DNA of 64,000 bases from contig JASKKH010000004.1 of NCBI GenBank assembly GCA_030154265.1, positions 1 to 64,000 on the forward strand, read 5' to 3'. This document shows, piece after piece, positions 1,366-33,807 of this stretch; positions within the stretch are counted from its first letter, which is position 1; each line of letters opens with the position of its first letter. Origin of the DNA: Clostridia bacterium. Its GTDB lineage: Bacteria; Bacillota; DSM-521; Neomoorellales; Neomoorellaceae. The notes below the pieces were generated by a model. It saw nothing but the letters and a program-made list of their open reading frames with translations. It was not told the DNA's origin and searched no databases. The translations under genes were made by a program, and so were the position numbers.

Positions 1366-1418
1366 TTTAGAAACTAATACTAACTCAAAATATATTCTTT
1401 TTAAGAACAGGAGGAAAA

Positions 1419-2171
1419 ATGTCACAAGAAAAAAGGCAATGGCTCTGGGCCCGTCTTGAAGACCTAGCCAGACAGGCAGAACATAGTGTCCGGTTCACCG
1501 GTTTCTTAGACCCAGCAGAGCAAATGGAAGCTAAGGCTTTTTTTAATCAAAATAAACAAGTTAACTTTGCATTTAATGGTGGGTATTTAGAGGCAGAACG
1601 GAAAATAGCCATCATTTATCCTGATTATATTGAACCTAAAAATATCGAACTACCCTTAGCTAACTTAATTATAACTTGGAATGAACGTTTTAATAGCCCG
1701 AATCACCGAGACTTTTTAGGAGCTCTTTTAGGAACAGGTTTACGCCGTGAAGTAATAGGTGATATTATTGTTGGCAAAGGTCGCTGTCAAGTAATTATAT
1801 TTACCGAAAGTGGCTCTTTTCTGGAATTTAATCTTACTGAAGTAGGTAAAACACCAGTAAAGGCCTCCCTTGAACCTCTGTCTAGTCTAGAAGTTCCTCC
1901 TCGTAAAGTAAAGGTTATAAAGGCAACTGTTACCTCACCCCGACTGGATACCTTACTTGCTAAGGCTTTTGGCCTTTCCCGCAGCAAAACCATCCCTCTA
2001 ATTAAGGGAGGACAGGTAAAACTTAACTGGCAAGAAGAAACTAACCCCGACCGCAAAATAGATGATGGTGATATACTATCACTAAGGGGTCACGGAAGGG
2101 CCACAGTAAAATCTATTGGTGGTAAAACTAAAAAAGGAAGATTAAACGTTCTATTAGAAAGATGGTTATAA
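1419..2171 (+). CDS. ylmH: YlmH-type S4-domain RNA-binding protein
   Basis: 250 aa. The C-terminal S4 RNA-binding domain starts near residue 172 (SPRLDTLLAKAFGLSRSKT, then IKGGQVKLNW and KIDDGDILSLRGHGR). The N-terminal about 165 residues match the YlmH fold. YlmH is usually in the division cluster ylmE-F-G-H-divIVA; family work links such S4 proteins to ribosome-associated quality control, so a role on stalled 50S particles is a reasonable inference. Start: ATG with AGGAGG 5 nt upstream. It is the only clear housekeeping gene on the plus strand here and stands alone, converging on the rfbH gene with just 15 nt between the stops and no visible bidirectional terminator. Confidence 0.85.
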   Translation: MSQEKRQWLWARLEDLARQAEHSVRFTGFLDPAEQMEAKAFFNQNKQVNFAFNGGYLEAERKIAIIYPDYIEPKNIELPLANLIITWNERFNSPNHRDFLGALLGTGLRREVIGDIIVGKGRCQVIIFTESGSFLEFNLTEVGKTPVKASLEPLSSLEVPPRKVKVIKATVTSPRLDTLLAKAFGLSRSKTIPLIKGGQVKLNWQEETNPDRKIDDGDILSLRGHGRATVKSIGGKTKKGRLNVLLERWL

Positions 2172-2186
2172 AAATAACAGATACAT

Positions 2187-3541
2187 TTATTTTCTATCCC
2201 TAACAAACTTCTTAATTGTTCCAACCAAAAACTCAATCATCTCATCGGTTATTCCAGGGTATACCCCAACCCAGAAAGTTTGATTCATAATTATGTCTGT
2301 ATTTTTCAGTTCACCAATAACTCTATACCCTTTACCAGTTCGTCTCATTTCATCAAAGCAAGGGTGTTTTATAAAGTTACCTGCAAAAAGCATTCTTGTC
2401 TGTATTCCATGATTTTCAAGGTAATTTACTATTTCATCCCTGGTAAAACCTGCATTTTCTTTCATCGTTAATAAAAATCCAAACCAACTGGGATCTGAAT
2501 TTCTAGTAATTTCCGGCAAGACAAATACATCAGACATATCAGCCAAACCATCTCGTAATAGATTCCAGTTCCGTTTTCTGGCTTCTATAAAATCAGGTAA
2601 TTTTTTAAGCTGAGCACATCCTATAGCCGCCTGCATATCAGTTACTTTCAAGTTATACCCAAAATGAGAGTAAACATATTTATGATCATAACCATAGGGA
2701 AGCTCTCCGAACTGCTGCTTAAAGCGCTTTTTACAGGTATTGTCATATCCCGGGGAACACCAGCAATCTCGCCCCCAGTCCCGAAATGATTCAACCAAAC
2801 GTTTAATCTGAATATCATTCGTGTAAACGGCTCCACCTTCACCCATGGTTATATGATGCGGTGGATAAAAACTGGAAGTTCCTATGTGGCCAATAGTTCC
2901 TGTATATTTCCATTTTCCATTATAGAAAAACTTTGAACCCAAAGCATCGCAGTTATCTTCTATTAACCAAAGATTATACTTATCACAAAAATCTTTTACA
3001 GTCTGTAGTTCAAAAGGATTTCCAAGGGTATGAGCAAGCATCACAGCCTTTGTTTTATCAGACAATGCCTTTTCAAGTTTAGTGCAGTCTATATTGTATG
3101 TGGGAAGTATTACATCCACAAAGACAGGTATAGCTCCATACTGAATGATAGGAGCAACCGTAGTTGGAAACCCTGCTGCTACTGTAATAACCTCATCACC
3201 CTTTTTTATTCTTCTATCTCCAAGCTTTGGTGAAGTCAAGGCCATAAAAGCCAAGAGATTTGCAGATGAGCCTGAATTAGTTAAAGAACAATATTTAACT
3301 CCTAAAAATTCTGCAAATTCCTTTTCAAATTGTTCTGTATATCTTCCTGCTGTAAGCCAAAAGTCCAATGCCGAATCTACAAGTGCTGAAATTTCCTTTT
3401 CATCAAAGACACGTCCGGCATACGGAATACGGTCACCTGGGGTAAATGTGTTGTTGATTTTTTTATGTTTAACTTCAAAATATTTAATTGCCGCTTCAAT
3501 AACTTTTTTTTTAAATTTTTTTCTAATTCTATCTTATCCAT
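2187..3541 (-). CDS. rfbH: CDP-6-deoxy-4-hexulose 3-dehydratase (RfbH/E1), reading frame broken in an A9 tract
   Basis: PMP-dependent iron-sulfur enzyme removing the 3-OH of CDP-4-keto-6-deoxyglucose on the way to 3,6-dideoxyhexoses. The family hallmarks are present: His instead of the PLP lysine ([14 protein letters not shown]) and the [2Fe-2S] cysteines ([11 protein letters not shown]). The expected start is the ATG at 3541, with GGAGG 6 nt upstream, overlapping the rfbG stop by 8 nt. From it the frame reads 13 codons to an A9 run (3504-3512 on the plus strand). The family-like sequence ([14 protein letters not shown], then [11 protein letters not shown]) continues only after a -1 shift. 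An intact start for the remaining frame exists only at TTG 3368, which would delete the conserved N-terminus. Either slippage restores it, or the gene or read is mutated. The E3 reductase is not in this window. Confidence 0.85.
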
Positions 3542-22519: not shown

Positions 22520-23527
22520 TTAGAGTCCTTTTTCTACCATGAAAGCCGCTAAATCGGTTACTCTCTTTGAATAAGCCCATTCATTATCGTACCATGAAAC
22601 CACTTTAGCCAGGTTGCCATCGATTACCATAGTGGATAAAGCATCGACTATGGAAGAATGGGGATCACCATTGTAATCACGAGAAACCAATGGTTCTTCA
22701 CTGTAACCTAGTATCCCTTTCATATTGCCTTCAGAAGCTGCCTTCATAGCGGAATTTATTTCCTCCACAGTAGTAGGCTTTTCTAGCTCGGCAACTAGGT
22801 CAACGACTGAAACATTAGGTGTTGGAACGCGCATGGCCAGACCATTTAGTTTTCCTTTTAGTTCAGGCATAACTATCCCAATAGCCTTTGCTGCACCTGT
22901 TGTTGTAGGAATAATGGAAAGAGCTCCAGCCCTGGCCCTGCGTAAATCCCTATGCGTAAGATCAAGGATTCGCTGGTCATTGGTATAAGAATGGGCAGTA
23001 GTCATAAGACCTTTTTTAATTGTAAAGTTATCATGCAATACCTTGGTTATAGGAGCTAAACAGTTTGTAGTACAAGATGCATTAGAAACAATATGATGTT
23101 TTGACGGATCATATTTTTCATTATTGACCCCCATAACAATGGTAATATCTTCATTTTTTGCCGGAGCAGTAATAATGACCTTCTTGGCACCAGCCTCTTT
23201 ATGGGCTGCTGCCTTTGTTGCGTCTGTAAAAACACCTGTTGATTCAATGACTATATCTACACCAAGGTCTTTCCAGGGTAGTTTGGAAGGTTCCCGCTCA
23301 GCTAAAACTTTAACAAAGCGGCCATTAACAACTATACCGTCTTCATGGGTTTCAACAGTGGCATTTAAACGTCCATGAACCGAGTCATACTTTAAAAGAT
23401 GAGCATTCGTTTCAATGTCAGCTATATCATTGATAGCCACTACTTCCAATTCAGGTTTTTCCAAAAAAGCCCTGAACACCAAACGACCAATGCGGCCGAA
23501 ACCGTTAATACCTACCTTTACCGCCAC
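22520..23527 (-). CDS. gap: Glyceraldehyde-3-phosphate dehydrogenase
   Basis: 335 aa NAD-dependent enzyme of glycolysis. The N-terminal NAD-binding [16 protein letters not shown], the catalytic cysteine in [12 protein letters not shown] (about 150-161), [20 protein letters not shown] and the C-terminal [11 protein letters not shown] are visible. Asp of NDIAD after the Rossmann beta-2 fits NAD rather than NADP preference. GTG start with AGGAGG upstream. First gene of the operon; its usual neighbour, the regulator gene cggR, is absent and only an rpoN ruin lies upstream. Confidence 0.98.
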
Positions 23528-23608: not shown

Positions 23609-23717
23609 ATTTTCTTCTGGTTTATTATATCTTAAGTTATTCCAATTTATTAATATTATATTTATATATCGTAAGTTTCGACGCTCTATACCAAAATCCT
23701 CCTGTTATGAACGCATT

Positions 23718-24180
23718 CTAATAACGTTTTCTCTTAATAGCACATGGGATTCTCTCTGTATCACGATACTTGGCCACTGTTCGGCGTGAAATTCTTATCC
23801 CTTGGTTTATGTAACATTTGTTGAAGCTTAGAGTCTGTTAAAGGACTAGATGGATCTTCTCTTTTTATCACATCGATAATCGTTCTTTTTATACTTTCTG
23901 CACAAACGTTAACACCCTTCCTGGGGCTGTTAGCAAATAAAAAACTTTATTTTAAAAACACCCTGTGGCGTTTGTACATACTTTGCTGCCACCATGCTTA
24001 CAGTAGATTCATGTATATCTAAATCTTCGATAACTTCCTTCATCGTTAGGGGCTTTAAATATTTTAACCTCTTGTCGAAAATCTCTTTGCTTTTTTATCA
24101 AACAATTAACCACCCTATAGATTGTCATCCGCCGTTGTTCAAGACTACGAATAAGCCACGTGGCTGAATTTAGTTTGCTT
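23718..24180 (-). pseudogene. Remnant of rpoN (sigma-54 factor)
   Basis: Sigma-54 C-terminal sequence can be read in several frames on the minus strand. Recognisable blocks are WLIRSLEQRRMTIYRVVNC, LKPLTMKEVIEDLDIHES then TVSMVAAKYVQTPQGVFK, SIKRTIIDVIKREDPSSPL, and the RpoN box ISRRTVAKYRDTERIP just before the stop. At least three frameshifts and internal stops separate them, and the N-terminal half (region I and core-binding) is gone. In many Clostridia rpoN precedes cggR-gap, so this is the decayed native gene in its original place. Confidence 0.88.
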
Positions 24181-24566
24181 TCAATAATTGGTTAAATCTA
24201 AAGAGGTATAGTCACTAATTATACTATTATCCGAAGTCCACATTTAATCACCGTTCTAGTAATTATCTTAAGAAAACCGCATCCTTGAGGTTAAGATCAA
24301 TATTAATTCTAATTTAAATGGTATTGTGGTTACTTTAATGGGGCTGTCACCAAAAGTTTTTTCCAAAATCTTCACCCCCACTTTAGCATTAAACATTAAA
24401 ATTGCGTCATAAATAATCTTATCCCGTACCACTTTTGTAGTGATACGAGTTACTTTTTGGGATTAAATCATCTATTTATACTCTTTTGAGACAACGATCT
24501 ATCAACAGACAGGTATTGACTGTTACTCTAACTTTTGCTTTGCCAAAGACTATCTACTTTTACTTA
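24181..24566. other. Gene-poor spacer with a hairpin and a short unrecognised open frame
   Basis: Nothing is clearly coding. A minus-strand open frame of 54 codons (24268-24432, GTG start, no good ribosome binding site) has plausible amino-acid composition (KVGVKILEKTFGDSPIKVTT) but I do not recognise it; it may be another decayed gene. An interrupted inverted repeat lies at 24421-24463 (CGTACCACT/AGTGATACG inside ATCCC/GGGAT). It could end the glycosyltransferase transcript, but it has no T-run. Confidence 0.35.
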
Positions 24567-25616
24567 TTATTCTCCTTGAAGCCAGATATAAAATTTTTCC
24601 TCCCATTCCCTGACAATTTTGTCATAGGTAAAATATCCTAAAGCTCTCTCTCTGGCAGATTTTGACATTCGGGCTATCTCTATCGGATTCTTCAGCAACT
24701 TAATTATCTCTTGTGCAAATTCTGCTATTGGCACACTGCCATTTTTCATTTTTACAACTCTACCAGTAACTCCATCTCTTATTGTAGTAGAAAGTGCTCC
24801 AATTTCAGAACAAATAGAAGGTGTTCCTGCCGCCTGGCATTCCATGGCAGAAATACAAAACAATTCTTTAAAAGTACAGGGATAAACATGAAGCTGACTT
24901 GTTTTCTGTTCATAAATAAGCCTTTCTCTTTCTATCCTTCCCAAAAAACTAACACCTGGGATTCGCATGAAGGCTTTTTTATATTTCTCATTCTGAGGTT
25001 TTCTTCCCCACAGGGTATAATCACTTGTAATAACAAGTCTGGCATCTGGAATTACTTTTTTCACTAGTGGAAAAATTTGAACCATATTGTCCAATCCTTT
25101 CCTGGGTACAGAGCAATAAATAAGCTTATTTTTTATTTTTGGTAAAACGGTACTATATTCTTTATCATTTATGCCAAGCCTGGTTTGATATATTTTATCC
25201 CGCGGTACTTCGGTATTCTTTAAGAGCTCTTGAGTATGAAAAGAACTTATAGTAATAACTTTTTTAACGAAAGGTAATAACTTGGTCCAATCTTTAACCA
25301 AATTGCTATTTTCTTCTATTGACCAGTATAATTTTAATTTAGCTGGTACTAAATCCAATCTGGGAGGCTGGCCCCGGACAACCACCATAACATCCCATTT
25401 TTCCCTATAATCAAATTTGCCTATATTTCTATATCCAACCCCATTAAAAATACCTTCACGTAAAGTCTTATTAAATACCGTAACTTCATGTCTTTTGGAA
25501 AGTTCCCTCGTTATCTGCACAATTGCAGCTTCTGATCCTGGTAACCCGCTTCCCTCCATGTCCGGATCATTCCAGTCCTTTTGTGTTGGAAATGAATAGT
25601 AGAAACATATTTTCAT
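24567..25616 (-). CDS. Glycosyltransferase family 1/4-like (GT-B fold)
   Basis: 349 aa. The N-terminus (KICFYYSFPTQKDW, then GSGLPGSEAAIVQITRELSK) is the acceptor-domain start of GT4-like enzymes. The C-terminal domain shows LIYCSVPRKGLDNMVQIFPL and the EX7E motif ELFCISAME (about 262-270), followed by QAAGTPSICSEIGAL. I start at ATG 25616, one base after the stop of the upstream transferase, rather than at a longer in-frame ATG (25634) inside that gene. It is the last gene of the manC operon; function is in surface-glycan assembly with unknown specificity. Confidence 0.82.
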   Translation of the reverse strand: MKICFYYSFPTQKDWNDPDMEGSGLPGSEAAIVQITRELSKRHEVTVFNKTLREGIFNGVGYRNIGKFDYREKWDVMVVVRGQPPRLDLVPAKLKLYWSIEENSNLVKDWTKLLPFVKKVITISSFHTQELLKNTEVPRDKIYQTRLGINDKEYSTVLPKIKNKLIYCSVPRKGLDNMVQIFPLVKKVIPDARLVITSDYTLWGRKPQNEKYKKAFMRIPGVSFLGRIERERLIYEQKTSQLHVYPCTFKELFCISAMECQAAGTPSICSEIGALSTTIRDGVTGRVVKMKNGSVPIAEFAQEIIKLLKNPIEIARMSKSARERALGYFTYDKIVREWEEKFYIWLQGE

Positions 25617-25617
25617 A

Positions 25618-26730
25618 TTAGCTATACCCCTCATTTAAAAGCCTGTTCATTATTCTTTCGGCCGTAACATCCCAGGTTAGATTTTTGATACTTTCCAGGG
25701 CATTATCAGCTTTTTTTAGTGCTTCCGCTTTATTCTCATAAACTCTTCGCATCAGTTTCCTGAGATGGGAAATATCTGGTTTAGCCCATCTAAATCCCAT
25801 ATAAAATTTATCAATCGGCAGCCCCAGTCTGGGAACAGGTTCCAATTCTTTAACTTTTATGAGAAAAGCATTTTTTTCACTCACAAAGTCCAAGTGGGCT
25901 GACCAATCAGTAGTAATAACTGGAACTCCAGATGCCATAGCTTCTAGTACCGGGAAATTCCACCCTTCGCCCCTTGTAGGAAGTACAAAACAATCGGCAC
26001 TTTTATAAAGATTCGCCATTTCAGAAGTATTTAAGATTTGTGATATCAAATTTATTTTAGGTGGATTTTTGACTCCCGTATTGTTCATAAAATGCTTTAT
26101 TTCTTGTTTTATTTTCTCACCTGAATCATAATTTCTCCTGACATGGGATTTAATAACTAACTTTACAGCATCATTACCTGTAAATTCTTTCAAATAAGCC
26201 TCTAGTAAAATATCATAACCCTTTCTGGGAATCCACTCACATACTGTTAAAAAAGTAAAATCTTTTCTATTCCCTTTGCCCTTGGCATCCCGGGGATTAA
26301 AAACAGTAGTATCAACACCCAGGGGTAAGACTGTTACTTTTTCCTTTTGAATGCCACTTTTTATAAAGGTATCACGATTAAAAGTTGAAGGAACCCAAAC
26401 TTCATCCATTTTGTTACATAAATCCACCCATTGTTCAGGTACTCCGTCAATCTCGAGCATCGTTAAACCAATAGATTTTTTATAACCTTCTTCGTAGAGA
26501 AATAATGGTGGAATACCAATGTTTAAAAGATATTCACATTCTCCTTTTCTAAGCATTAGCCCTTCTAAAATCTTTCTAGTATGCCCTGGTAGATTAAAAG
26601 GCGGTGTGAACCAAGCTATAGGTTGTAAAAAAATTTCTACTCCCTGTCGATGAAGGGCTAATGTTATCTCTCTGGTTACCGTTGTATATCCAGCGAGACC
26701 ATAAACTGGTCCTGCGATGTGCAACTTCAT
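25618..26730 (-). CDS. Glycosyltransferase family 4-like, paralogue of the 14614-15705 gene
   Basis: 370 aa GT-B transferase beginning KLHIAGPVYGLAGYTTVTRE. MDEVWVPSTFNRDTF, VTVLPLGVDTTVFNPRD, EWIPRKGYDILLEAYLKEF and the EX7E motif EGWNFPVLE (about 264-272) align with the transferase at 14614-15705, as does the C-terminal GFRWAKPD/GARWAIVD pair. Both genes follow an rmd locus, so they are a duplicated module. The start ATG lies 20 nt after the residual rmd stop; the spacing fits an original manC-rmd-GT operon. Confidence 0.83.
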   Translation of the reverse strand: MKLHIAGPVYGLAGYTTVTREITLALHRQGVEIFLQPIAWFTPPFNLPGHTRKILEGLMLRKGECEYLLNIGIPPLFLYEEGYKKSIGLTMLEIDGVPEQWVDLCNKMDEVWVPSTFNRDTFIKSGIQKEKVTVLPLGVDTTVFNPRDAKGKGNRKDFTFLTVCEWIPRKGYDILLEAYLKEFTGNDAVKLVIKSHVRRNYDSGEKIKQEIKHFMNNTGVKNPPKINLISQILNTSEMANLYKSADCFVLPTRGEGWNFPVLEAMASGVPVITTDWSAHLDFVSEKNAFLIKVKELEPVPRLGLPIDKFYMGFRWAKPDISHLRKLMRRVYENKAEALKKADNALESIKNLTWDVTAERIMNRLLNEGYS

Positions 26731-26750
26731 AAAAATCCCCTGTCAAAACC

Positions 26751-26990
26751 TTAATAATAGTCCCTTTTGGAAACTTTTTTTCTCCAATAATCCAACAGAT
26801 CTTTAATAGTCTTCTCAAGAGGTATCTCGGGTTCCATCCCGTCTGTTTATTAAATTTTAAATAATTTCCCACAAGAATAGGGACGCATTTTCCTCAACCT
26901 GCTTACAGAAATTGAAGGCAACTGTTAGAGGGCATATTCGGCCAGGTGGCTTCCTACAAATCCCGTTATTCCGGTAATTAAAATTTTCAT
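26751..26990 (-). pseudogene. Remnant of rmd, internally deleted copy
   Basis: The first 21 codons (MKILITGITGFVGSHLAEYA plus Leu) match the intact rmd at 15839-16795 and then meet a TAA. A short piece related to NFCKQV follows, then the C-terminus PILVGNYLKFNKQTGWNP and, after a frameshift, EIPLEKTIKDLLDYWRKK. More than 230 codons are missing. Its ATG overlaps the manC stop (ATGA), showing that the two genes were once translationally coupled here. Confidence 0.87.
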
Positions 26991-28429
26991 TCTTTAATCC
27001 ACCCACCTTCCTTCTTTTCCCTACCGTACCTGTCATTTAACCTAATAACATCATCCAAGTGAGAGGTAGATACCTCAAACAGGACGAGCTCTTCAGATGC
27101 CATAATCCTGTGAGAAACATTAGGTTTGACATGTATCACTTTACCTGGTTTAACAGGAATAACTTCCTCACCAAGTAGAATGAATCCCGTACCAGACTCA
27201 ATATAAAAAGTCTCTTCCTTTTCTTTGTGCAAATGGACACTCGTTGCCTCCCCCGGAGCTACAATAAGAATCTTAGCTGCATAATTTTGAGTTTGGGCCC
27301 AAATAATTTCTCTTCCCCAAGGCTTTTCGATCATAGTTCCTGAGTTTTTATATTCATCTCTCCTTCTTTTTTTTAGATGAGTCGTAATATTTAAAAATTC
27401 TTCAGAATTTAATACTTTCTTAATCTGGTTAAGCATATCCTCTGCACAAACCAACAAACCATCATCAGAACCGGCAATCACCAAATTATCCACACCAATA
27501 ACCATTACAGGTCCCCTGTCCCAATCCACTATACACCCAGAAGAATTTACACTTAATACATTATCCGTTCTGCAGAGGCCGTTTCTTTTCAAGGCTCTCC
27601 AATCCCCTAAATCATCCCAGGAGAAATTACCTTCTACAACAATAATATTACGGCATTTTTCAACTATCCCATAATCAATAGATATAGCAGGAATAGATGC
27701 AAAAAGTTCTTTCATGTAGGTGTTTAAATCTGTGCCACAGCCCTTTTCATGCTGAAAGTTTTTGATTTTTTCTAAGGCTGTGTATAATTCTGGGAGATAT
27801 TTTTTAACCAGTGACCGGAGAGTACTTAGCTTCCAGATAAACATTCCAGAATTCCAAAGACAGTTACCAGATTTAAGTAGGGACTCCGCCTTACTTTTTT
27901 GGGGTTTTTCAATAAATCTTTTTACAAAATAAGCACATGTTTTCTTGTCGGCCTTTTTACCCAAAATGATATAACCATATTCTGTCTCTGGCCTGGTAGG
28001 AGTAATACCAACTGTTACAACCTCTACGTCGTTTGTAAGCTGTACTGCTTGCTTCAGTGTATTAACCCAGTTTTCTTCATTATCGATAAGATGATCAGAC
28101 GGAACAACTACCATAACCGGGTCAGTTTCATATCTTTCAGCAATAACCATAGAAGCATAACCAATTGCCACAGCAGTATCTTTGGTAACCGGTTCAATGA
28201 TAAGATTTTTTTCATCCATTTCAGGTAATTGCATTTTAACCTGTTCTTTATATTTTTCAGGAATAACAATATAAATATCATCCGTTTGTACTAGTTTCCA
28301 CAATCTTTCAACTGTTTTCTGTAAAAGGCTTTTTGAATCACCCAATGTTAAGAATTGTTTGGGTAAATCTGGGGAACTTTTCGGCCAGAACCTGTTTCCC
28401 CTTCCCCCTGCCAGTACCAGGGCAATCAT
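26987..28429 (-). CDS. manC: Mannose-1-phosphate guanylyltransferase with C-terminal cupin (ManC/GMP-PMI type)
   Basis: 480 aa. Residues 1-340 form the guanylyltransferase: LAGGRGNRFWPKSSPDLPKQ (nucleotide-binding loop), VVPSDHLID with the metal-binding Asp, and FVKRFIEKP. Residues about 365-470 form the cupin: MIEKPWGREI, VHLHKEKEETFYI and HVKPNVSHRIM, the type II phosphomannose isomerase fold. Product is GDP-mannose, used for mannose or 6-deoxymannose units. Start ATG with AAGGAGG upstream. A second manC at 16803-16976 is a ruin, and the start of a third copy survives near 29429. Confidence 0.92.
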   Translation of the reverse strand: MIALVLAGGRGNRFWPKSSPDLPKQFLTLGDSKSLLQKTVERLWKLVQTDDIYIVIPEKYKEQVKMQLPEMDEKNLIIEPVTKDTAVAIGYASMVIAERYETDPVMVVVPSDHLIDNEENWVNTLKQAVQLTNDVEVVTVGITPTRPETEYGYIILGKKADKKTCAYFVKRFIEKPQKSKAESLLKSGNCLWNSGMFIWKLSTLRSLVKKYLPELYTALEKIKNFQHEKGCGTDLNTYMKELFASIPAISIDYGIVEKCRNIIVVEGNFSWDDLGDWRALKRNGLCRTDNVLSVNSSGCIVDWDRGPVMVIGVDNLVIAGSDDGLLVCAEDMLNQIKKVLNSEEFLNITTHLKKRRRDEYKNSGTMIEKPWGREIIWAQTQNYAAKILIVAPGEATSVHLHKEKEETFYIESGTGFILLGEEVIPVKPGKVIHVKPNVSHRIMASEELVLFEVSTSHLDDVIRLNDRYGREKKEGGWIKE

Positions 28430-28574
28430 TCTATTTTCCTCCTTGAATTAAATGGTTTTTATTATAATTCATTCTATTCAAATTTTATTGGTATGTTAAA
28501 ATTTTCTATTGGATCTTCATGGTTGGTTTATAAGTAAACTTCAGATAACTTTATAACTTATAGTGAAAGAACAA

Positions 28575-28599
28575 AAAGACACCTTGGTACGGTGCCTTT
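28575..28599 (-). terminator. Hairpin 1 of three related terminators, with vestige of a third Cys-rich gene
   Basis: AAAGACACC/GGTGCCTTT (one G-U pair) around a TTGGTAC loop, nearly identical to the hairpins at 28660-28684 and 29533-29558. The following 24 nt (to about 28627) resemble the last codons of the two Cys-rich genes in altered form, so a third copy of that gene has probably been deleted, leaving only its 3' end and terminator. Confidence 0.6.
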
Positions 28600-28654
28600 G
28601 AAAATAGGTATTTTGGAAGTAGTGTATCATTTTAAAAATGGTCAAAGTGTTCAT

Positions 28655-28684
28655 TAAAAAAAGACACCCTGGTACGGTGTCTTT
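28655..28684 (-). terminator. Terminator after the first Cys-rich gene (hairpin 2)
   Basis: Perfect 9-bp stem AAAGACACC/GGTGTCTTT with a 7-nt loop, followed on the minus strand by a run of at least seven T. It lies 14 nt past the 28698-29327 gene and separates it from manC. Confidence 0.85.
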
Positions 28685-28697
28685 GCTAATGGATATT

Positions 28698-29327
28698 TTA
28701 GAAGCATTGTTCGGGTGGTGTTGGAGGACATACTCCAGGTAAAGGAAGACAATGTGCTGGTACACAGAAACCGTAGCTGGGAACAAGTAATTGTACTTTT
28801 AGTATACACTTAATTACAAGACATACTTGAATGCCGCACATTACTCTGATTGAGTCTTCCTCTACGTTAGTAACAACACATATACAACTTATTATAGTAC
28901 TCTCAGTACAGTCGGGTGATACTTCTTCAGGACAGCATAGAGTCACAGTTTTGGTAAAATTAAATGTTCTTTCAATAGTCTCTTCTTCATTATTAGGGTT
29001 TATTAAGGTTACAGGAACTGTAATAAGTAAGGTTATTGTAAAAAATCCAGTTTCATCTACTTCTGTACGGCTAATTTCTGTACATGTTATTTCTTCACCG
29101 GGAGTTAATTTACACCCTAATATATCCCCTTCATTAAAAGTTCCTGTTTCAAATTCCATATAGGCTCCAGTTGTTATTATAGTTTCCCTGCTAATGTCAT
29201 CAACTTGAAAACAGCTGTCATAAACCTTATCTACTACTATACATTCAATACGGTCAAAAGGCGGACATCCTTCCGGTGGACACTTTCCCGGCTGTATTTG
29301 TTGACGAGTCATTTTTTCTTCTACCAT
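28698..29327 (-). CDS. Cysteine-rich protein of unknown function (possible spore-surface protein), copy 1
   Basis: 209 aa with 18 cysteines, no signal peptide. N-terminal CPPEGCPPFDRIECIVV is followed by DKVYDSCFQ; a Thr/Glu-rich variable middle; CC...C...CIC near 130-150; and the tail VQLLVPSYGFCVPA to PPTPPEQCF. All 18 cysteines align with those of the neighbour at 29571-30203, and the ends are almost identical while the middles diverge. The make-up (cysteine pairs, Pro-rich ends, no export signal) resembles spore coat or exosporium proteins that cross-link on the forespore, but that is inference. ATG with AAGGAGGG upstream; its own terminator, so monocistronic. Confidence 0.75.
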   Translation of the reverse strand: MVEEKMTRQQIQPGKCPPEGCPPFDRIECIVVDKVYDSCFQVDDISRETIITTGAYMEFETGTFNEGDILGCKLTPGEEITCTEISRTEVDETGFFTITLLITVPVTLINPNNEEETIERTFNFTKTVTLCCPEEVSPDCTESTIISCICVVTNVEEDSIRVMCGIQVCLVIKCILKVQLLVPSYGFCVPAHCLPLPGVCPPTPPEQCF

Positions 29328-29404
29328 CCTTAGCCCTCCTTATTTACAGATTGCTGAAATATCTCGATTCAATGATAAGATTTTTTCATTTATTTTTTAG
29401 GTAA

Positions 29405-29429
29405 TTACATTAAGTATCAAGGCAATCAT
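29405..29429 (-). pseudogene. Vestigial manC start codon region
   Basis: On the minus strand ATG ATT GCC TTG ATA CTT reads MIALIL, matching the intact manC start MIALVL, and nearby upstream bases match the manC leader (ATTCTATTCAA block). It lies between the two Cys-rich genes, as expected if a unit consisting of Cys-rich gene, terminator and manC start had been tandemly duplicated. Confidence 0.5.
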
Positions 29430-29525
29430 TCTTTTAATTTATTCTATTCAACCGTTTATGATTAGGTTATTTGGATATTATGGTTAATTTGTAACTATAA
29501 TCCATTTAATTTCATAATATATATT

Positions 29526-29558
29526 AAAAAAAAAAGACACCGCGGTACCGGTGTCTTT
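29526..29558 (-). terminator. Terminator after the second Cys-rich gene (hairpin 3)
   Basis: Perfect 9-bp stem AAAGACACC/GGTGTCTTT with an 8-nt loop and a run of about seven T on the minus strand. It lies 12 nt past the stop of 29571-30203. Confidence 0.88.
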
Positions 29559-29570
29559 GAAAATAGTATT

Positions 29571-30203
29571 TTAGAAACATTGTTCGGGTGGTGTCGGAGG
29601 ACACACTCCAGGTATAGTAACACAAGGTGCTGGTACACAGAAGCCATAGCTGGGAACAAGTAATTGTACTTTTAGTATACACTTAATTACAAGACATACT
29701 TGAATGTCGCACTGGAATGTTACTCTAGTTGGATTATCATGATCATCAACCTCAATAACTGCACAATTGCATGCTACCAATGTACTTTCAGAACAATCTG
29801 GATCTACACCATCCGGGCAGCAAAGTGTTACAGTTTTTATAATGGTCTGTTTCCTTTCTACAACTTCAGTTTCCTCATTTGGGTTTACAAACCTTAAAAA
29901 GACTTCTACTAACAGAGTTAGGGTTACAAATCCGGTTTCATCTACAGGTTCACGTTTAATCACTTTACAATTTATAGGTTCATCAGGATCTAATCCGCAT
30001 AGTATTTCATCACCTACATTTAAAGGTCCTGTTGTGAATTCATCTGTTGTAATTTCTTTTGAAAAATCTTCAATTTGGAAGCAGCTATCATAAACCTTAT
30101 CCACCACTATACATTCAATACGGTCAAAAGGCGGACATCCTTCCGGTGGACACTTTCCCGGCATTATTTGCTGTTGTTGGCGGGTCATTTTTTCTTCTGC
30201 CAT
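29571..30203 (-). CDS. Cysteine-rich protein of unknown function (possible spore-surface protein), copy 2
   Basis: 210 aa, paralogue of 28698-29327 with all 18 cysteines kept. The N-terminus (GKCPPEGCPPFDRIECIVV) and the C-terminal block from VCLVIKCILKVQLLVPSYGF on are essentially identical, while residues about 40-140 differ strongly. That suggests either selection on the ends or gene conversion of the ends. It begins MAEEKMTRQQQQ with an AAGGAGGG site 7 nt upstream, and ends in its own terminator. No transmembrane or signal segment. Function unknown; likely a structural, disulfide-linked surface protein. Confidence 0.75.
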   Translation of the reverse strand: MAEEKMTRQQQQIMPGKCPPEGCPPFDRIECIVVDKVYDSCFQIEDFSKEITTDEFTTGPLNVGDEILCGLDPDEPINCKVIKREPVDETGFVTLTLLVEVFLRFVNPNEETEVVERKQTIIKTVTLCCPDGVDPDCSESTLVACNCAVIEVDDHDNPTRVTFQCDIQVCLVIKCILKVQLLVPSYGFCVPAPCVTIPGVCPPTPPEQCF

Positions 30204-30330
30204 CTACTAGCCCTCCTTATTTAAGTAGTCATATATTTAAACCTACTATATATTATTTTAAAGGTGTTAAAGGGTTACATTTTTATAAAATTGGTAAAAT
30301 TACCTATTAAAAAAATTTTTATATATTTCA

Positions 30331-30349
30331 AGAAACCTGCCAGGTTCCT
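30331..30349 (-). terminator. Weak terminator candidate after the HMA-like gene
   Basis: A short stem AACCT/AGGTT with a GCC loop, extended by mismatched pairs, lies 11 nt past the HMA-like stop and is followed by a T-rich but interrupted tract on the minus strand. Confidence 0.35.
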
Positions 30350-30359
30350 AGCAACGTCT

Positions 30360-30704
30360 TCAAGCACGAACAAAATTTTGATACCCCAAACTCAAAATTT
30401 CAAAAATGATTTGTTCAATAGATATTTTGTAAGGATTATAACTAATAATCAGTTTTTGGGGGTTCTGATACGGCTTAATATTTACTATTCCGGGCATTTG
30501 AAGCAGCCTTTTGGAAATAATTTTATGATCATTTTCTGAATCCATATCAAGAATTGTCAGGTTTAAAGTTACAGTACTAGTAATTTCTTGTGAATATGAC
30601 TTGTCATTAGAAATTTTCTGCGGTACATTCCCTTTACAGGGTTCTTTGTGTGCTTTATTTTGTTGAGGGATCATTCCCTGAATATTTCTTTTATACCAGC
30701 TCAT
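30360..30704 (-). CDS. HMA-like domain protein lacking the metal-binding CxxC
   Basis: 114 aa. The last about 70 residues have the beta-alpha-beta-beta-alpha-beta pattern of heavy-metal-associated domains (VTLNLTILDMDSENDHKIIS, MPGIVNIKPY, KLIISYNPYKISIEQIIFEI), but no CxxC in the first loop, so copper binding in the usual way is unlikely. The N-terminal 45 residues are polar. I prefer ATG 30704 because GGGGGAG lies 6 nt upstream. The frame stays open to a GTG at 30812 without a ribosome binding site, which would add a basic, partly hydrophobic 36-residue leader. Function unknown. Confidence 0.6.
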   Translation of the reverse strand: MSWYKRNIQGMIPQQNKAHKEPCKGNVPQKISNDKSYSQEITSTVTLNLTILDMDSENDHKIISKRLLQMPGIVNIKPYQNPQKLIISYNPYKISIEQIIFEILSLGYQNFVRA

Positions 30705-31061
30705 TAATTCTCCCCCAATCCATAGTAGTAAACAACTTTTTAGAAACTTTTTTCTTCTCAACCTCTCCCCTTGAAATTCCAATCCTTTAGTTAGCTGTTT
30801 TACTTTTTTCACGGAAAGAACTCTTTATTTCCTACATCTGCATACGTATTTAGGTGCTTCATTCTCACTTCCCCTAAAAAAATGTGATTGATTTTGGCAA
30901 AAAAATACATACCTATCTAAAACTGTAATCTGGCCAGTAAACTTCTATCATTATGAGACAAGCTCCCTATTTGTGGCATCAGACATTTTTACCTTGTTTG
31001 TCTTTTTCTTAACCACAAAATATAATCAATATTGTAGAAACATTTCTAAGAAGGTTAAAAA

Positions 31062-31868
31062 TTGAAAGTAAAGAGTTTTAGAGTATTGATTTTAGTAGCG
31101 TTTCTTATAATAACAATGCTGCAATTTAATGTTCCTGTTGCTGAAGCATCCTGGGGCTTAGAAAAACTTTTAAACTTGAACCGTTCTCAGGACACTTCCC
31201 AAAACCCTCCTCAAACAAAAGAGGAACAGCCAAGAAATCCTGCTGAACCACAGGTTCCAGAGGAAGAAGAAAATACTCAGAATCCAGATGCAACCGTTGA
31301 CAGTGAAACGCCAGACAGTAAACAAAGTACTGCCGATTTGATCAGGTATCTAAGGAATAGAAGATTGAGATATTATAATCCCGGCAACACTACACCAACA
31401 ACAGAACCACAAAAAAATCAAGAGCAAGCAACTGCTCAACCCCAGGCGCCAAAGGAAGAAAAAAATACTCAGGATCCGGATGTAACTGCTGACAAGGAAG
31501 TTTTAAAACTATTTAATATGGTCAATGAAGAACGCAAAAGCCGCGGCCTGCATCCCCTCATGTTACATACAGAATTAACGAATCTTGCTGAAATGAAAAG
31601 TAGCGACATGGTAGAAAATAATTATTTCGACCACACTTCCCCAAATTTAGGAAATTTTTACGAAATGGTTTATAATGCTAGGATCCCCTTCAGACAGGTA
31701 GGAGAAAACCTCGCTTATGCTAGTTGTGTTGAAAAAGCACATTATTTATTAATGGGAAGTGAAGGCCATAAAAAAAATATTTTAAATCCCAATTTTACTC
31801 ATATAGGTATCGGAGTAGCACATGATCGTTATGGTGTTAAAGTAACACAGCTCTTCATTGCTCAATAG
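31062..31868 (+). CDS. Secreted CAP-domain (SCP/PR-1, YkwD-like) protein
   Basis: 268 aa. A signal peptide (VLILVAFLIITMLQFNVPVA, cleavage near ASWG) is followed by a Pro/Glu/Gln-rich linker of about 110 residues and a C-terminal CAP domain (about 145-268). CAP landmarks: LFNMVNEERKSRGLHPL, FDHTSP with the cavity His, GENLAYA and GHKKNILNPNFTHIGIGV. The linker holds a repeated unit (PQVPEEEENTQNPD and PQAPKEEKNTQDPD). YkwD-type proteins are exported in Bacillota, some spore-associated; enzymatic activity is not established. TTG start with AAGAAGG upstream. Lone plus-strand gene in this island. Confidence 0.85.
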   Translation: MKVKSFRVLILVAFLIITMLQFNVPVAEASWGLEKLLNLNRSQDTSQNPPQTKEEQPRNPAEPQVPEEEENTQNPDATVDSETPDSKQSTADLIRYLRNRRLRYYNPGNTTPTTEPQKNQEQATAQPQAPKEEKNTQDPDVTADKEVLKLFNMVNEERKSRGLHPLMLHTELTNLAEMKSSDMVENNYFDHTSPNLGNFYEMVYNARIPFRQVGENLAYASCVEKAHYLLMGSEGHKKNILNPNFTHIGIGVAHDRYGVKVTQLFIAQ

Positions 31869-32349: not shown

Positions 32350-32644
32350 TATATAAAAAATGCTTTACCTTGAAAGGTTCTTCGGGGTATCTTAACGGTA
32401 ATTCGAACATTTCTCGAATCGTATGTACCTGTTTTTTAAGACCCCCTATATCCTCATATGAAATTTTTGTACTTTCACCTGATTTAAGAGTAAATATTAG
32501 TGCTAATGCAAATAAGGTTGTAGATAAAGGACTATCAGGAGTAAAAAAACACCAAATAAGCGGTGTATTTATTAATTGTTCCTTATACCAATAATAACCA
32601 TAAATTGTTCCTATTATATTTATATAAGGGTAATTAAAAACCAT
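32333..32644 (-). pseudogene. Chimeric relic: DUF1405 (YpjA-like) membrane fragment joined to an AAA-ATPase fragment
   Basis: 103 codons. Residues about 9-50 ([17 protein letters not shown], then [17 protein letters not shown]) are the N-terminal part of a DUF1405 membrane protein, normally about 200 aa. From residue about 60 the sequence switches to [20 protein letters not shown] then [12 protein letters not shown], the linker before the Walker A of Cdc48/VCP-type AAA ATPases, and stops before the P-loop. Neither part could work. It overlaps the GvpG-like relic, so a deletion has fused pieces of at least three genes. Confidence 0.65.
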
Positions 32645-32901
32645 CTCTGGAACGGATTATACCAAAGAAGATATTTTATCAAAGAAAAACAGTTATTAAT
32701 TTTTTGATTAAAGAGGTAGTTAAGTCCATATCGATACCAATAAAATACCGTAAGATTATACTTTTTAAACGTAAAAAAGGTAAATATCTAGTTATCGATA
32801 TCCAAAAAATTCCAGGCCGTCCGCCGTAATGGAACAACTTGTCGCCAATAAAACATGCTGTTATGTTCAATAACTGGATATGTTACCGTTCGACGCATAT
32901 A
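32645..32901. other. Decayed spacer downstream of whiA
   Basis: Only short, stop-broken frames are seen; some minus-strand pieces ([13 protein letters not shown]) could be the lost N-terminus of the DUF1405 relic. In related genomes this is where whiA would run toward rpoN. No terminator for whiA is evident. Confidence 0.35.
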
Positions 32902-33807
32902 TCAGTTCTTCCCTTGAGTCCGCACCTGTTTTGTCAGCCTCTCTAATCGCCTCAAGCGATGATTTACCCCTGATTTTCCTATTGGTGGATTAAGCATTTC
33001 CCCCAATTCCTTTAAACTTGCTTCCGGATATTGTAACCTTAAATTTGCTATCTCTTTCAAACTTTGGGGCAAACTATCCCAGCCTATAGTAGTTACTAAG
33101 TAACGAATATTCTCCGCTTGACGCAAACCGGTTTCAACTGTCTTGTTTAAATTGGCTGTTTCACAATTAACTAACCGATTAACTTGATTACGCATATCCC
33201 TATAAACCAAAACATTCTCATAAGCCAGAACCGCATTATAGGCTCCCATAAGGCTTAACGTGCGAACAATCTGTTCACTGTCTTTCAAATATATAATATA
33301 GCCTCGCTGACGTTGGCTTAAACGTGCCTCAATTTCTAGTTTCTCCATTAATTCTTTCATAAAATTAGCTTCAGTTTCGTCTGAAAAAAAATATTCTAAG
33401 TGATGGGTACCTGAAGGTCTATTTACTGACCCTGATATCAAAAAAGCCCCTCTTAGATAAGCAGCCCTACAACATCTATATTCAGGTACTGTCTCCTTTT
33501 CATTTAACCACTTTTCAATATTCTCTCTACTTGTTTGCATTACCACTTTTAAAGTTGCCCTTCCCCTACTGCTCTTACGTCCGTTTTCTACACTTACATT
33601 AGGTGTTATAAATTCCTTGGCTAAAGAATAGAACTTTCTAGCAACCACAACATAGTAAGTACTCCATACAACCACATTTTGTTTTGAAATTGAATCAAAA
33701 CCACCTAACCTTAGTAAAGCCATCAACTCAGTTTTACGACAGCAACGTTTCTTACTTTTTATACGAGCTAACTCTTCCTTAGTCTGCAAGGAAAAAGATT
33801 GTACCAC
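32902..33807 (-). CDS. whiA: WhiA, DNA-binding protein of the LAGLIDADG/HTH fold
   Basis: 301 aa. Residues about 1-90 are the WhiA N-domain (SKKRCCRKTELMALLRLGGF). The LAGLIDADG-like core follows, with RCCRAAYLRGAFLISGSVNR then PSGTHHLEYFF (about 122-152). The C-terminal helix-turn-helix is QYPEASLKELGEMLNPPIGK then SGVNHRLRRLERL. In Bacillota WhiA affects cell division and chromosome segregation; in Actinobacteria it regulates sporulation genes. Last of the linked rapZ-yvcK-whiA genes, 26 nt after yvcK. Confidence 0.95.
   Translation of the reverse strand: MVQSFSLQTKEELARIKSKKRCCRKTELMALLRLGGFDSISKQNVVVWSTYYVVVARKFYSLAKEFITPNVSVENGRKSSRGRATLKVVMQTSRENIEKWLNEKETVPEYRCCRAAYLRGAFLISGSVNRPSGTHHLEYFFSDETEANFMKELMEKLEIEARLSQRQRGYIIYLKDSEQIVRTLSLMGAYNAVLAYENVLVYRDMRNQVNRLVNCETANLNKTVETGLRQAENIRYLVTTIGWDSLPQSLKEIANLRLQYPEASLKELGEMLNPPIGKSGVNHRLRRLERLTKQVRTQGKN

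What the first reader, a model, noticed from the sequence alone, without database searches (positions are those of the whole stretch)
23718..24180. Sigma-54 gene decayed in place and cggR lost
The RpoN box and sigma-54 HTH region survive as broken pieces exactly where rpoN normally precedes the glycolytic operon. Loss of sigma-54 would remove all -24/-12 promoter control unless a second copy exists. The adjacent regulator cggR is absent, so glycolytic control must have changed.
Basis: partly seen in the sequence, partly recalled or inferred. Interest (0 to 1): 0.6.

Follow-up and report, generated by a model that had tools for sequence, protein, structure and literature searches.

The report
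Dead sigma-54 gene, no spare copy
A Moorella-like bacterium has lost its only detectable sigma-54 gene (a specialised transcription switch) and its one native partner protein has lost the parts that work with sigma-54, yet one operon elsewhere in the assembly still looks wired for the missing factor.

Summary
Window 23721-24185 (minus strand) encodes residues 305-461 of RpoN (sigma-54), broken by three frameshifts and two codon deletions; the 5' two thirds are gone. A frameshift-aware alignment scores 496, against 31-40 for shuffled DNA. The assembly (1.99 Mb, 99.9% complete, Moorellaceae) has no other rpoN; 16 of 17 relatives in the family carry one (15 with an unbroken frame).

Only two sigma-54 activators (EBPs) remain. 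The native one lost its sensor half, its GAFTGA loop and its Walker B acidic pair but keeps its DNA-binding end. The other, unknown elsewhere in the family, is intact, on a 6.1-kb contig that also carries the genome's only two perfect -24/-12 promoters. That island is a late arrival, a contaminant, or a sign of an unassembled second rpoN.

The cggR inference fails: cggR is also missing at this locus in six relatives that have rpoN there, including M. thermoacetica. Its absence predates the decay and does not imply changed glycolytic control.

Sigma-54 loss with altered EBPs is known (Neisseria, Fusobacterium, Jannaschia). This is a new, unusually legible case.

The parts
23721..24185 (-). rpoN (sigma-54) pseudogene: C-terminal DNA-binding third, residues 305-461, three frameshifts and two codon deletions
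23721..23807 (-). piece carrying the RpoN box (SRRTVAKYRD)
23806..23955 (-). third reading-frame piece, residues about 390-433
23930..24097 (-). piece carrying the sigma-54 HTH, with one codon deleted and invariant residues changed
22520..23527 (-). gap, first gene of the intact glycolytic run gap-pgk-tpi-gpm-eno
   Evidence: 88% identical to M. thermoacetica
23624..23653 (-). sigma-A-like promoter candidate (TTAATA-18-TATAAT) upstream of gap
   Evidence: consensus match only, number found in the region is near chance
24567..31868 (.). block lying between rpoN and its former upstream neighbours: two glycosyltransferases, a ManC-like enzyme, two cysteine-rich paralogues, a CAP-domain protein
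32471..32870 (-). broken DUF1405 and acetyltransferase genes, former neighbours between whiA and rpoN
32902..33807 (-). whiA, intact, former upstream neighbour

Best explanation
This is the wreck of the only detectable sigma-54 gene of a Moorellaceae bacterium. A block of surface-polysaccharide and coat-type genes (about 8 kb) now lies between the genes that used to be upstream of rpoN and its 3' third (shown); whatever brought it in, or a linked deletion, removed the activator-interacting and core-binding domains (inferred). The remaining DNA-binding third then collected frameshifts (shown). Without RpoN no -24/-12 promoter can be opened (established sigma-54 biology). The rest of the system matches: native loci have no perfect -24/-12 site, and the one native EBP has lost its sensor half, its GAFTGA loop and its Walker B DE pair while its lid and Fis-type HTH stay conserved (shown). 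It most likely survives as a DNA-binding regulator of sigma-A promoters, in the manner of TyrR or DhaR (inferred). The intact EBP and promoters on contig C32 are most likely a late-acquired, now orphaned short-chain-acid operon or a contaminating contig (inferred). The absence of cggR is older and separate (shown by relatives).
For: Only rpoN pieces in the assembly are at this locus. 16 of 17 family members carry rpoN, 15 with an unbroken frame. Synteny whiA ... rpoN-gap in relatives; neighbours broken here. Perfect -24/-12 sites: 2 in G000, both on C32; 0 in rpoN-less G002; 9, 11, 17, 22 in G003, G005, G001, G007. Native EBP: GAFTGA to GALKQD, Walker B DE to EG, N-terminal about 420 aa gone, synteny kept; invariant sites kept 85/127 in the AAA+ core but 66/76 in lid plus HTH (p=0.0016), no such split in intact orthologues.
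Against: EBP1 on C32 is intact with GAFTGA and two perfect promoters, and composition fits the own genome, which is not expected long after sigma-54 loss. EBP and promoter counts are weak evidence on their own: M. thermoacetica G009 with intact rpoN also has only two true EBPs and one perfect site. The assembly is in 70 contigs.
Confidence: 0.8

Rival explanations
1. A second, functional rpoN exists in an unassembled stretch (for example beside contig C32), so this is a redundant dead copy and sigma-54 control continues.
For: EBP1 has no indel in 1764 nt where the indel rate of the rpoN remnant would predict about 11-19; its promoters are perfect; Francke et al. 2011 report a near perfect match between sigma-54 and true EBPs across genomes (PMC3162934).
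Against: 99.9% completeness and no further rpoN piece by profile or full-length protein; no second rpoN in any Moorellaceae genome searched (the second weak hit in G007 is in a 964-aa frame). The native EBP lost its sigma-54 contact loop.
Confidence: 0.1
2. Contig C32 is a contaminant from another organism, so the intact EBP and promoters do not belong to this genome, which is then wholly sigma-54-free.
For: Small contig with no overlap to others; EBP1 has no close homologue in the family, only in G047 (64%) among 399 phylum genomes; GC 34% at the low edge.
Against: Tetranucleotide correlation with the own genome 0.636, rank 32 of 52 own fragments; 2 of 134 foreign fragments and none of 29 low-GC ones reach it. 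Reported contamination is 0. Horizontal gain explains the same facts.
Confidence: 0.35
3. The frameshifts are sequencing or assembly errors and the gene is intact.
For: Draft assembly; M. stamsii rpoN is split once in its draft, which may be such an error.
Against: Three frameshifts, two codon deletions and the loss of 304 codons, with neighbouring whiA, gap, pgk, tpi and eno clean; changed residues at HTH sites invariant in relatives.
Confidence: 0.02
4. The remnant still makes a small DNA-binding peptide that occupies old -24/-12 sites.
For: 68 of 83 family-invariant sites are kept.
Against: No open frame joins HTH and RpoN box; the HTH is damaged; native target sites are gone.
Confidence: 0.01

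Closest known systems
Neisseria rpoN remnant (inactive sigma-54, no EBPs; PMC3162934, PMC12316311)
   Same: A sigma-54 gene surviving as a non-functional remnant in a lineage that has dropped sigma-54 control.
   Different: Here the front two thirds are gone rather than the promoter-contacting helices, and EBP genes remain.
Fusobacterium nucleatum and Jannaschia EBPs in genomes without sigma-54 (PMC3162934)
   Same: EBP kept without sigma-54 and with an altered GAFTGA loop, proposed to act with the housekeeping sigma.
   Different: Here the loop is replaced over four residues, Walker B and the sensor half are also lost, and the rpoN wreck is still visible.
TyrR / DhaR / HupR type regulators (EBP-like, sigma-70 dependent)
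   Same: AAA+ EBP homologue without a working GAFTGA, with a Fis-type HTH.
   Different: Function here is inferred only; no target known.
Experimental rpoN deletion in Campylobacter jejuni (PMC7677240, title and abstract only)
   Same: Loss of rpoN in a lineage that normally has it.
   Different: A laboratory evolution experiment in a host-associated species; this is a natural lineage.

Membership tests
functional sigma-54 (RpoN/SigL) | one open frame with activator-interacting, core-binding and DNA-binding domains | tested here: not met
   only residues 305-461, in three frames
rpoN pseudogene in the ancestral place | sequence homology plus conserved position upstream of gap with several disabling lesions | tested here: met
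functional sigma-54 activator (EBP2, C15) | GAFTGA loop and Walker B DE | tested here: not met
   GALKQD and EG
TyrR-like sigma-70 regulator (EBP2, C15) | regulation of a housekeeping-sigma promoter | not testable with these tools
   inferred from loss of the loop with conserved HTH
sigma-54-dependent operon (C32) | EBP with GAFTGA and -24/-12 promoters | tested here: met
sigma-54-dependent operon (C32) | sigma-54 present in the same cell | tested here: not met
   none in the assembly; a gap cannot be excluded
cggR-gap glycolytic operon | CggR (PF04198) gene upstream of gap | tested here: not met
   none in the own genome; none at the locus in six relatives

The most novel reading that the evidence does not exclude
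A sigma-54-type activator with an intact GAFTGA loop and perfect -24/-12 promoters (contig C32) is kept under selection and works in a cell that makes no RpoN, through some other polymerase factor or a promoter that doubles as a sigma-A promoter.
Probability: 0.05. Interest if true: 0.75.

Novelty: new member of a known kind. Interest (0 to 1): 0.4.

Why it matters
Sigma-54 control is close to all or nothing across genomes: the factor with its activators, or neither. Here the loss can be read in steps in one genome: a broken sigma gene, native promoters gone, a native activator stripped of its sigma-54 contact and ATPase residues but keeping its DNA-binding end, and one operon still wired for the missing factor. 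The relative G002 has neither rpoN nor true EBPs, so the family could serve as a natural series for how a dedicated transcription system is dismantled.

Tried and rejected
Second rpoN in the assembly: none. N-terminal remnant near the site or next to whiA: none. Degenerate -24/-12 sites as a hidden regulon: the one-mismatch excess over control is about twofold, the same as in sigma-54-free G002, so not counted as evidence. EBP number alone as proof of attrition: dropped, since M. thermoacetica G009 with an intact rpoN also has only two true EBPs. C32 overlap with other contigs: none. Plasmid origin of EBP1: only distant plasmid homologues, under 60% identity. cggR loss linked to rpoN decay: rejected. 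The literature search found no report of rpoN loss in Moorellaceae, open papers only. The GAP tree is too short to say whether G000 and G002 share one loss.

Full report
What is there. The own genome (G000) has 1.99 Mb in 70 contigs, is 99.9% complete with 0 reported contamination, and the window is the start of contig C10. Its gap protein groups with Moorella and G002 in a small tree (support 96/97). On the minus strand just upstream of gap (22520-23527) lies a broken rpoN. Pfam Sigma54_DBD finds four pieces, all here. Aligned with frameshifts allowed, 24185-23721 reads as residues 305-461 of M. thermoacetica RpoN with 104 of 152 residues identical, three frameshifts and two one-codon deletions, score 496 against 31-40 for shuffles. 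With the frameshifts allowed for there is no in-frame stop. Residues 1-304 are absent here and elsewhere.

How it came about. In relatives the order is whiA - acetyltransferase - DUF1405 - rpoN - gap (M. stamsii, G001, G003, G005, G007), or whiA - rpoN - gap in M. thermoacetica, with 193 bp between rpoN and gap. In the window whiA is intact (32902-33807), the acetyltransferase and DUF1405 genes are broken (32471-32870), then comes a block with two glycosyltransferases, a ManC-like enzyme, two cysteine-rich paralogues and a CAP protein (24567-31868), then the rpoN 3' third and gap. So the decay happened in place. That the block's arrival removed the front of the gene is inference.

Is there a second copy? 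None was found. Full-length RpoN and PF04552 find nothing else in the assembly. Of 17 other family genomes, 16 carry rpoN; 15 have an unbroken frame, and in G016 (M. stamsii) the draft frame is split once. G002 (1.4 Mb, 98% complete) has none.

The rest of the system. PF00158 gives two true EBPs in G000; the other four matches are weak hits to other AAA+ proteins. Relatives with rpoN range from one or two (G004, M. thermoacetica G009) to about seventeen, and G002 has none with a true score. So the count in G000 is low but not outside the range; the state of the two is what matters. Perfect TGGCAYRN4TTGCW sites number 2 in G000, 0 in G002, 1 in G009, 2 in G004, 6 in G006, and 9, 11, 17 and 22 in G003, G005, G001 and G007. 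Both G000 sites are on contig C32.

The native EBP (EBP2, C15:15894-16937, minus). It sits between an SGNH hydrolase and U32-MutS2, as in M. thermoacetica, where the orthologue is a 749-aa protein with an iron-sulfur/hydrogenase-like front. In G000 it is 348 aa. It has lost the front, the GAFTGA loop (now GALKQD) and the Walker B DE pair (now EG). Sites invariant in 13 orthologues are kept at 85/127 in the AAA+ core but 66/76 in lid and HTH (p=0.0016); intact orthologues show no such split. Its frame has no indel in 1044 nt, where the remnant's frameshift rate would predict about seven. This is what one expects if the DNA-binding end is still used and the sigma-54-facing end is not. Francke et al. 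2011 (PMC3162934) use the same reasoning for EBPs with altered GAFTGA in genomes without sigma-54. A sigma-A target has not been shown.

The intact EBP (EBP1, C32:158-1924). It has PAS, AAA+ with GAFTGA, and HTH. A perfect -24/-12 site precedes it (114-129) and another precedes the CoA-transferase gene that follows (2077-2092); then come an enoyl-CoA hydratase and a transporter-like gene. A similar layout, with a perfect site after the EBP gene, is seen with EBP1 homologues in G047, which has rpoN. EBP1 has no indel in 1764 nt, where the rate in the rpoN remnant would give about 11-19, so it has not drifted unused in this genome for as long. Composition fits G000, but this does not prove that C32 belongs to it. 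Late arrival, contamination and a hidden second rpoN all remain open; I rate the hidden rpoN at about 10%.

cggR. It is absent, but not lost with rpoN. Six relatives with rpoN next to gap have no cggR between them, and only 5 of 17 have any PF04198 protein, far from gap. A genome outside the family (L044) does have a gene of CggR size and place between rpoN and gap (identified by position and size, not by a domain search). So the absence is a family trait. A sigma-A-like site lies upstream of gap, at about chance frequency for the region. Nothing here shows changed glycolytic control.

Verdict. Loss of sigma-54 is a known kind of event; the value lies in catching the dismantling part-way, with one unexplained intact operon.

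Noticed in passing
G000 contig C32 (L125) 114-129, 158-1924, 2077-2092: Intact sigma-54 activator and the only two perfect -24/-12 promoters of the genome, before the activator and before a CoA-transferase gene, in a genome without detectable rpoN.
   Followed up: partly
G000 contig C15 15894-16937 (L126 5892-6938): Truncated EBP orthologue that lost GAFTGA and Walker B but keeps lid and HTH.
   Followed up: yes
G002 (probably the genome behind L042): A 1.4-Mb family member with no rpoN, no true EBP and no perfect -24/-12 site; gap there is preceded by etf genes.
   Followed up: partly
window about 32400-32870 (-): Broken acetyltransferase and DUF1405 genes next to whiA; the DUF1405 remnant is followed in frame by a stretch ([20 protein letters not shown]) that resembles Cdc48-type AAA ATPases.
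   Followed up: no
window 28698-29327 and 29571-30203 (-): Two tandem cysteine-rich paralogues (QPGKCPPEGCPPFDRIECIVVDKVYDSCFQ); the first has no Pfam match; possibly coat proteins.
   Followed up: no
G004:C190 (L133) 1413-3166: An EBP gene split by a frameshift in a relative that still has rpoN and only two perfect -24/-12 sites; perhaps an earlier stage of the same attrition.
   Followed up: no
L043 6383-7771 (Moorella stamsii): rpoN is split into two open frames in the draft genome although the genome has many EBPs; a sequencing error or a recent frameshift.
   Followed up: no
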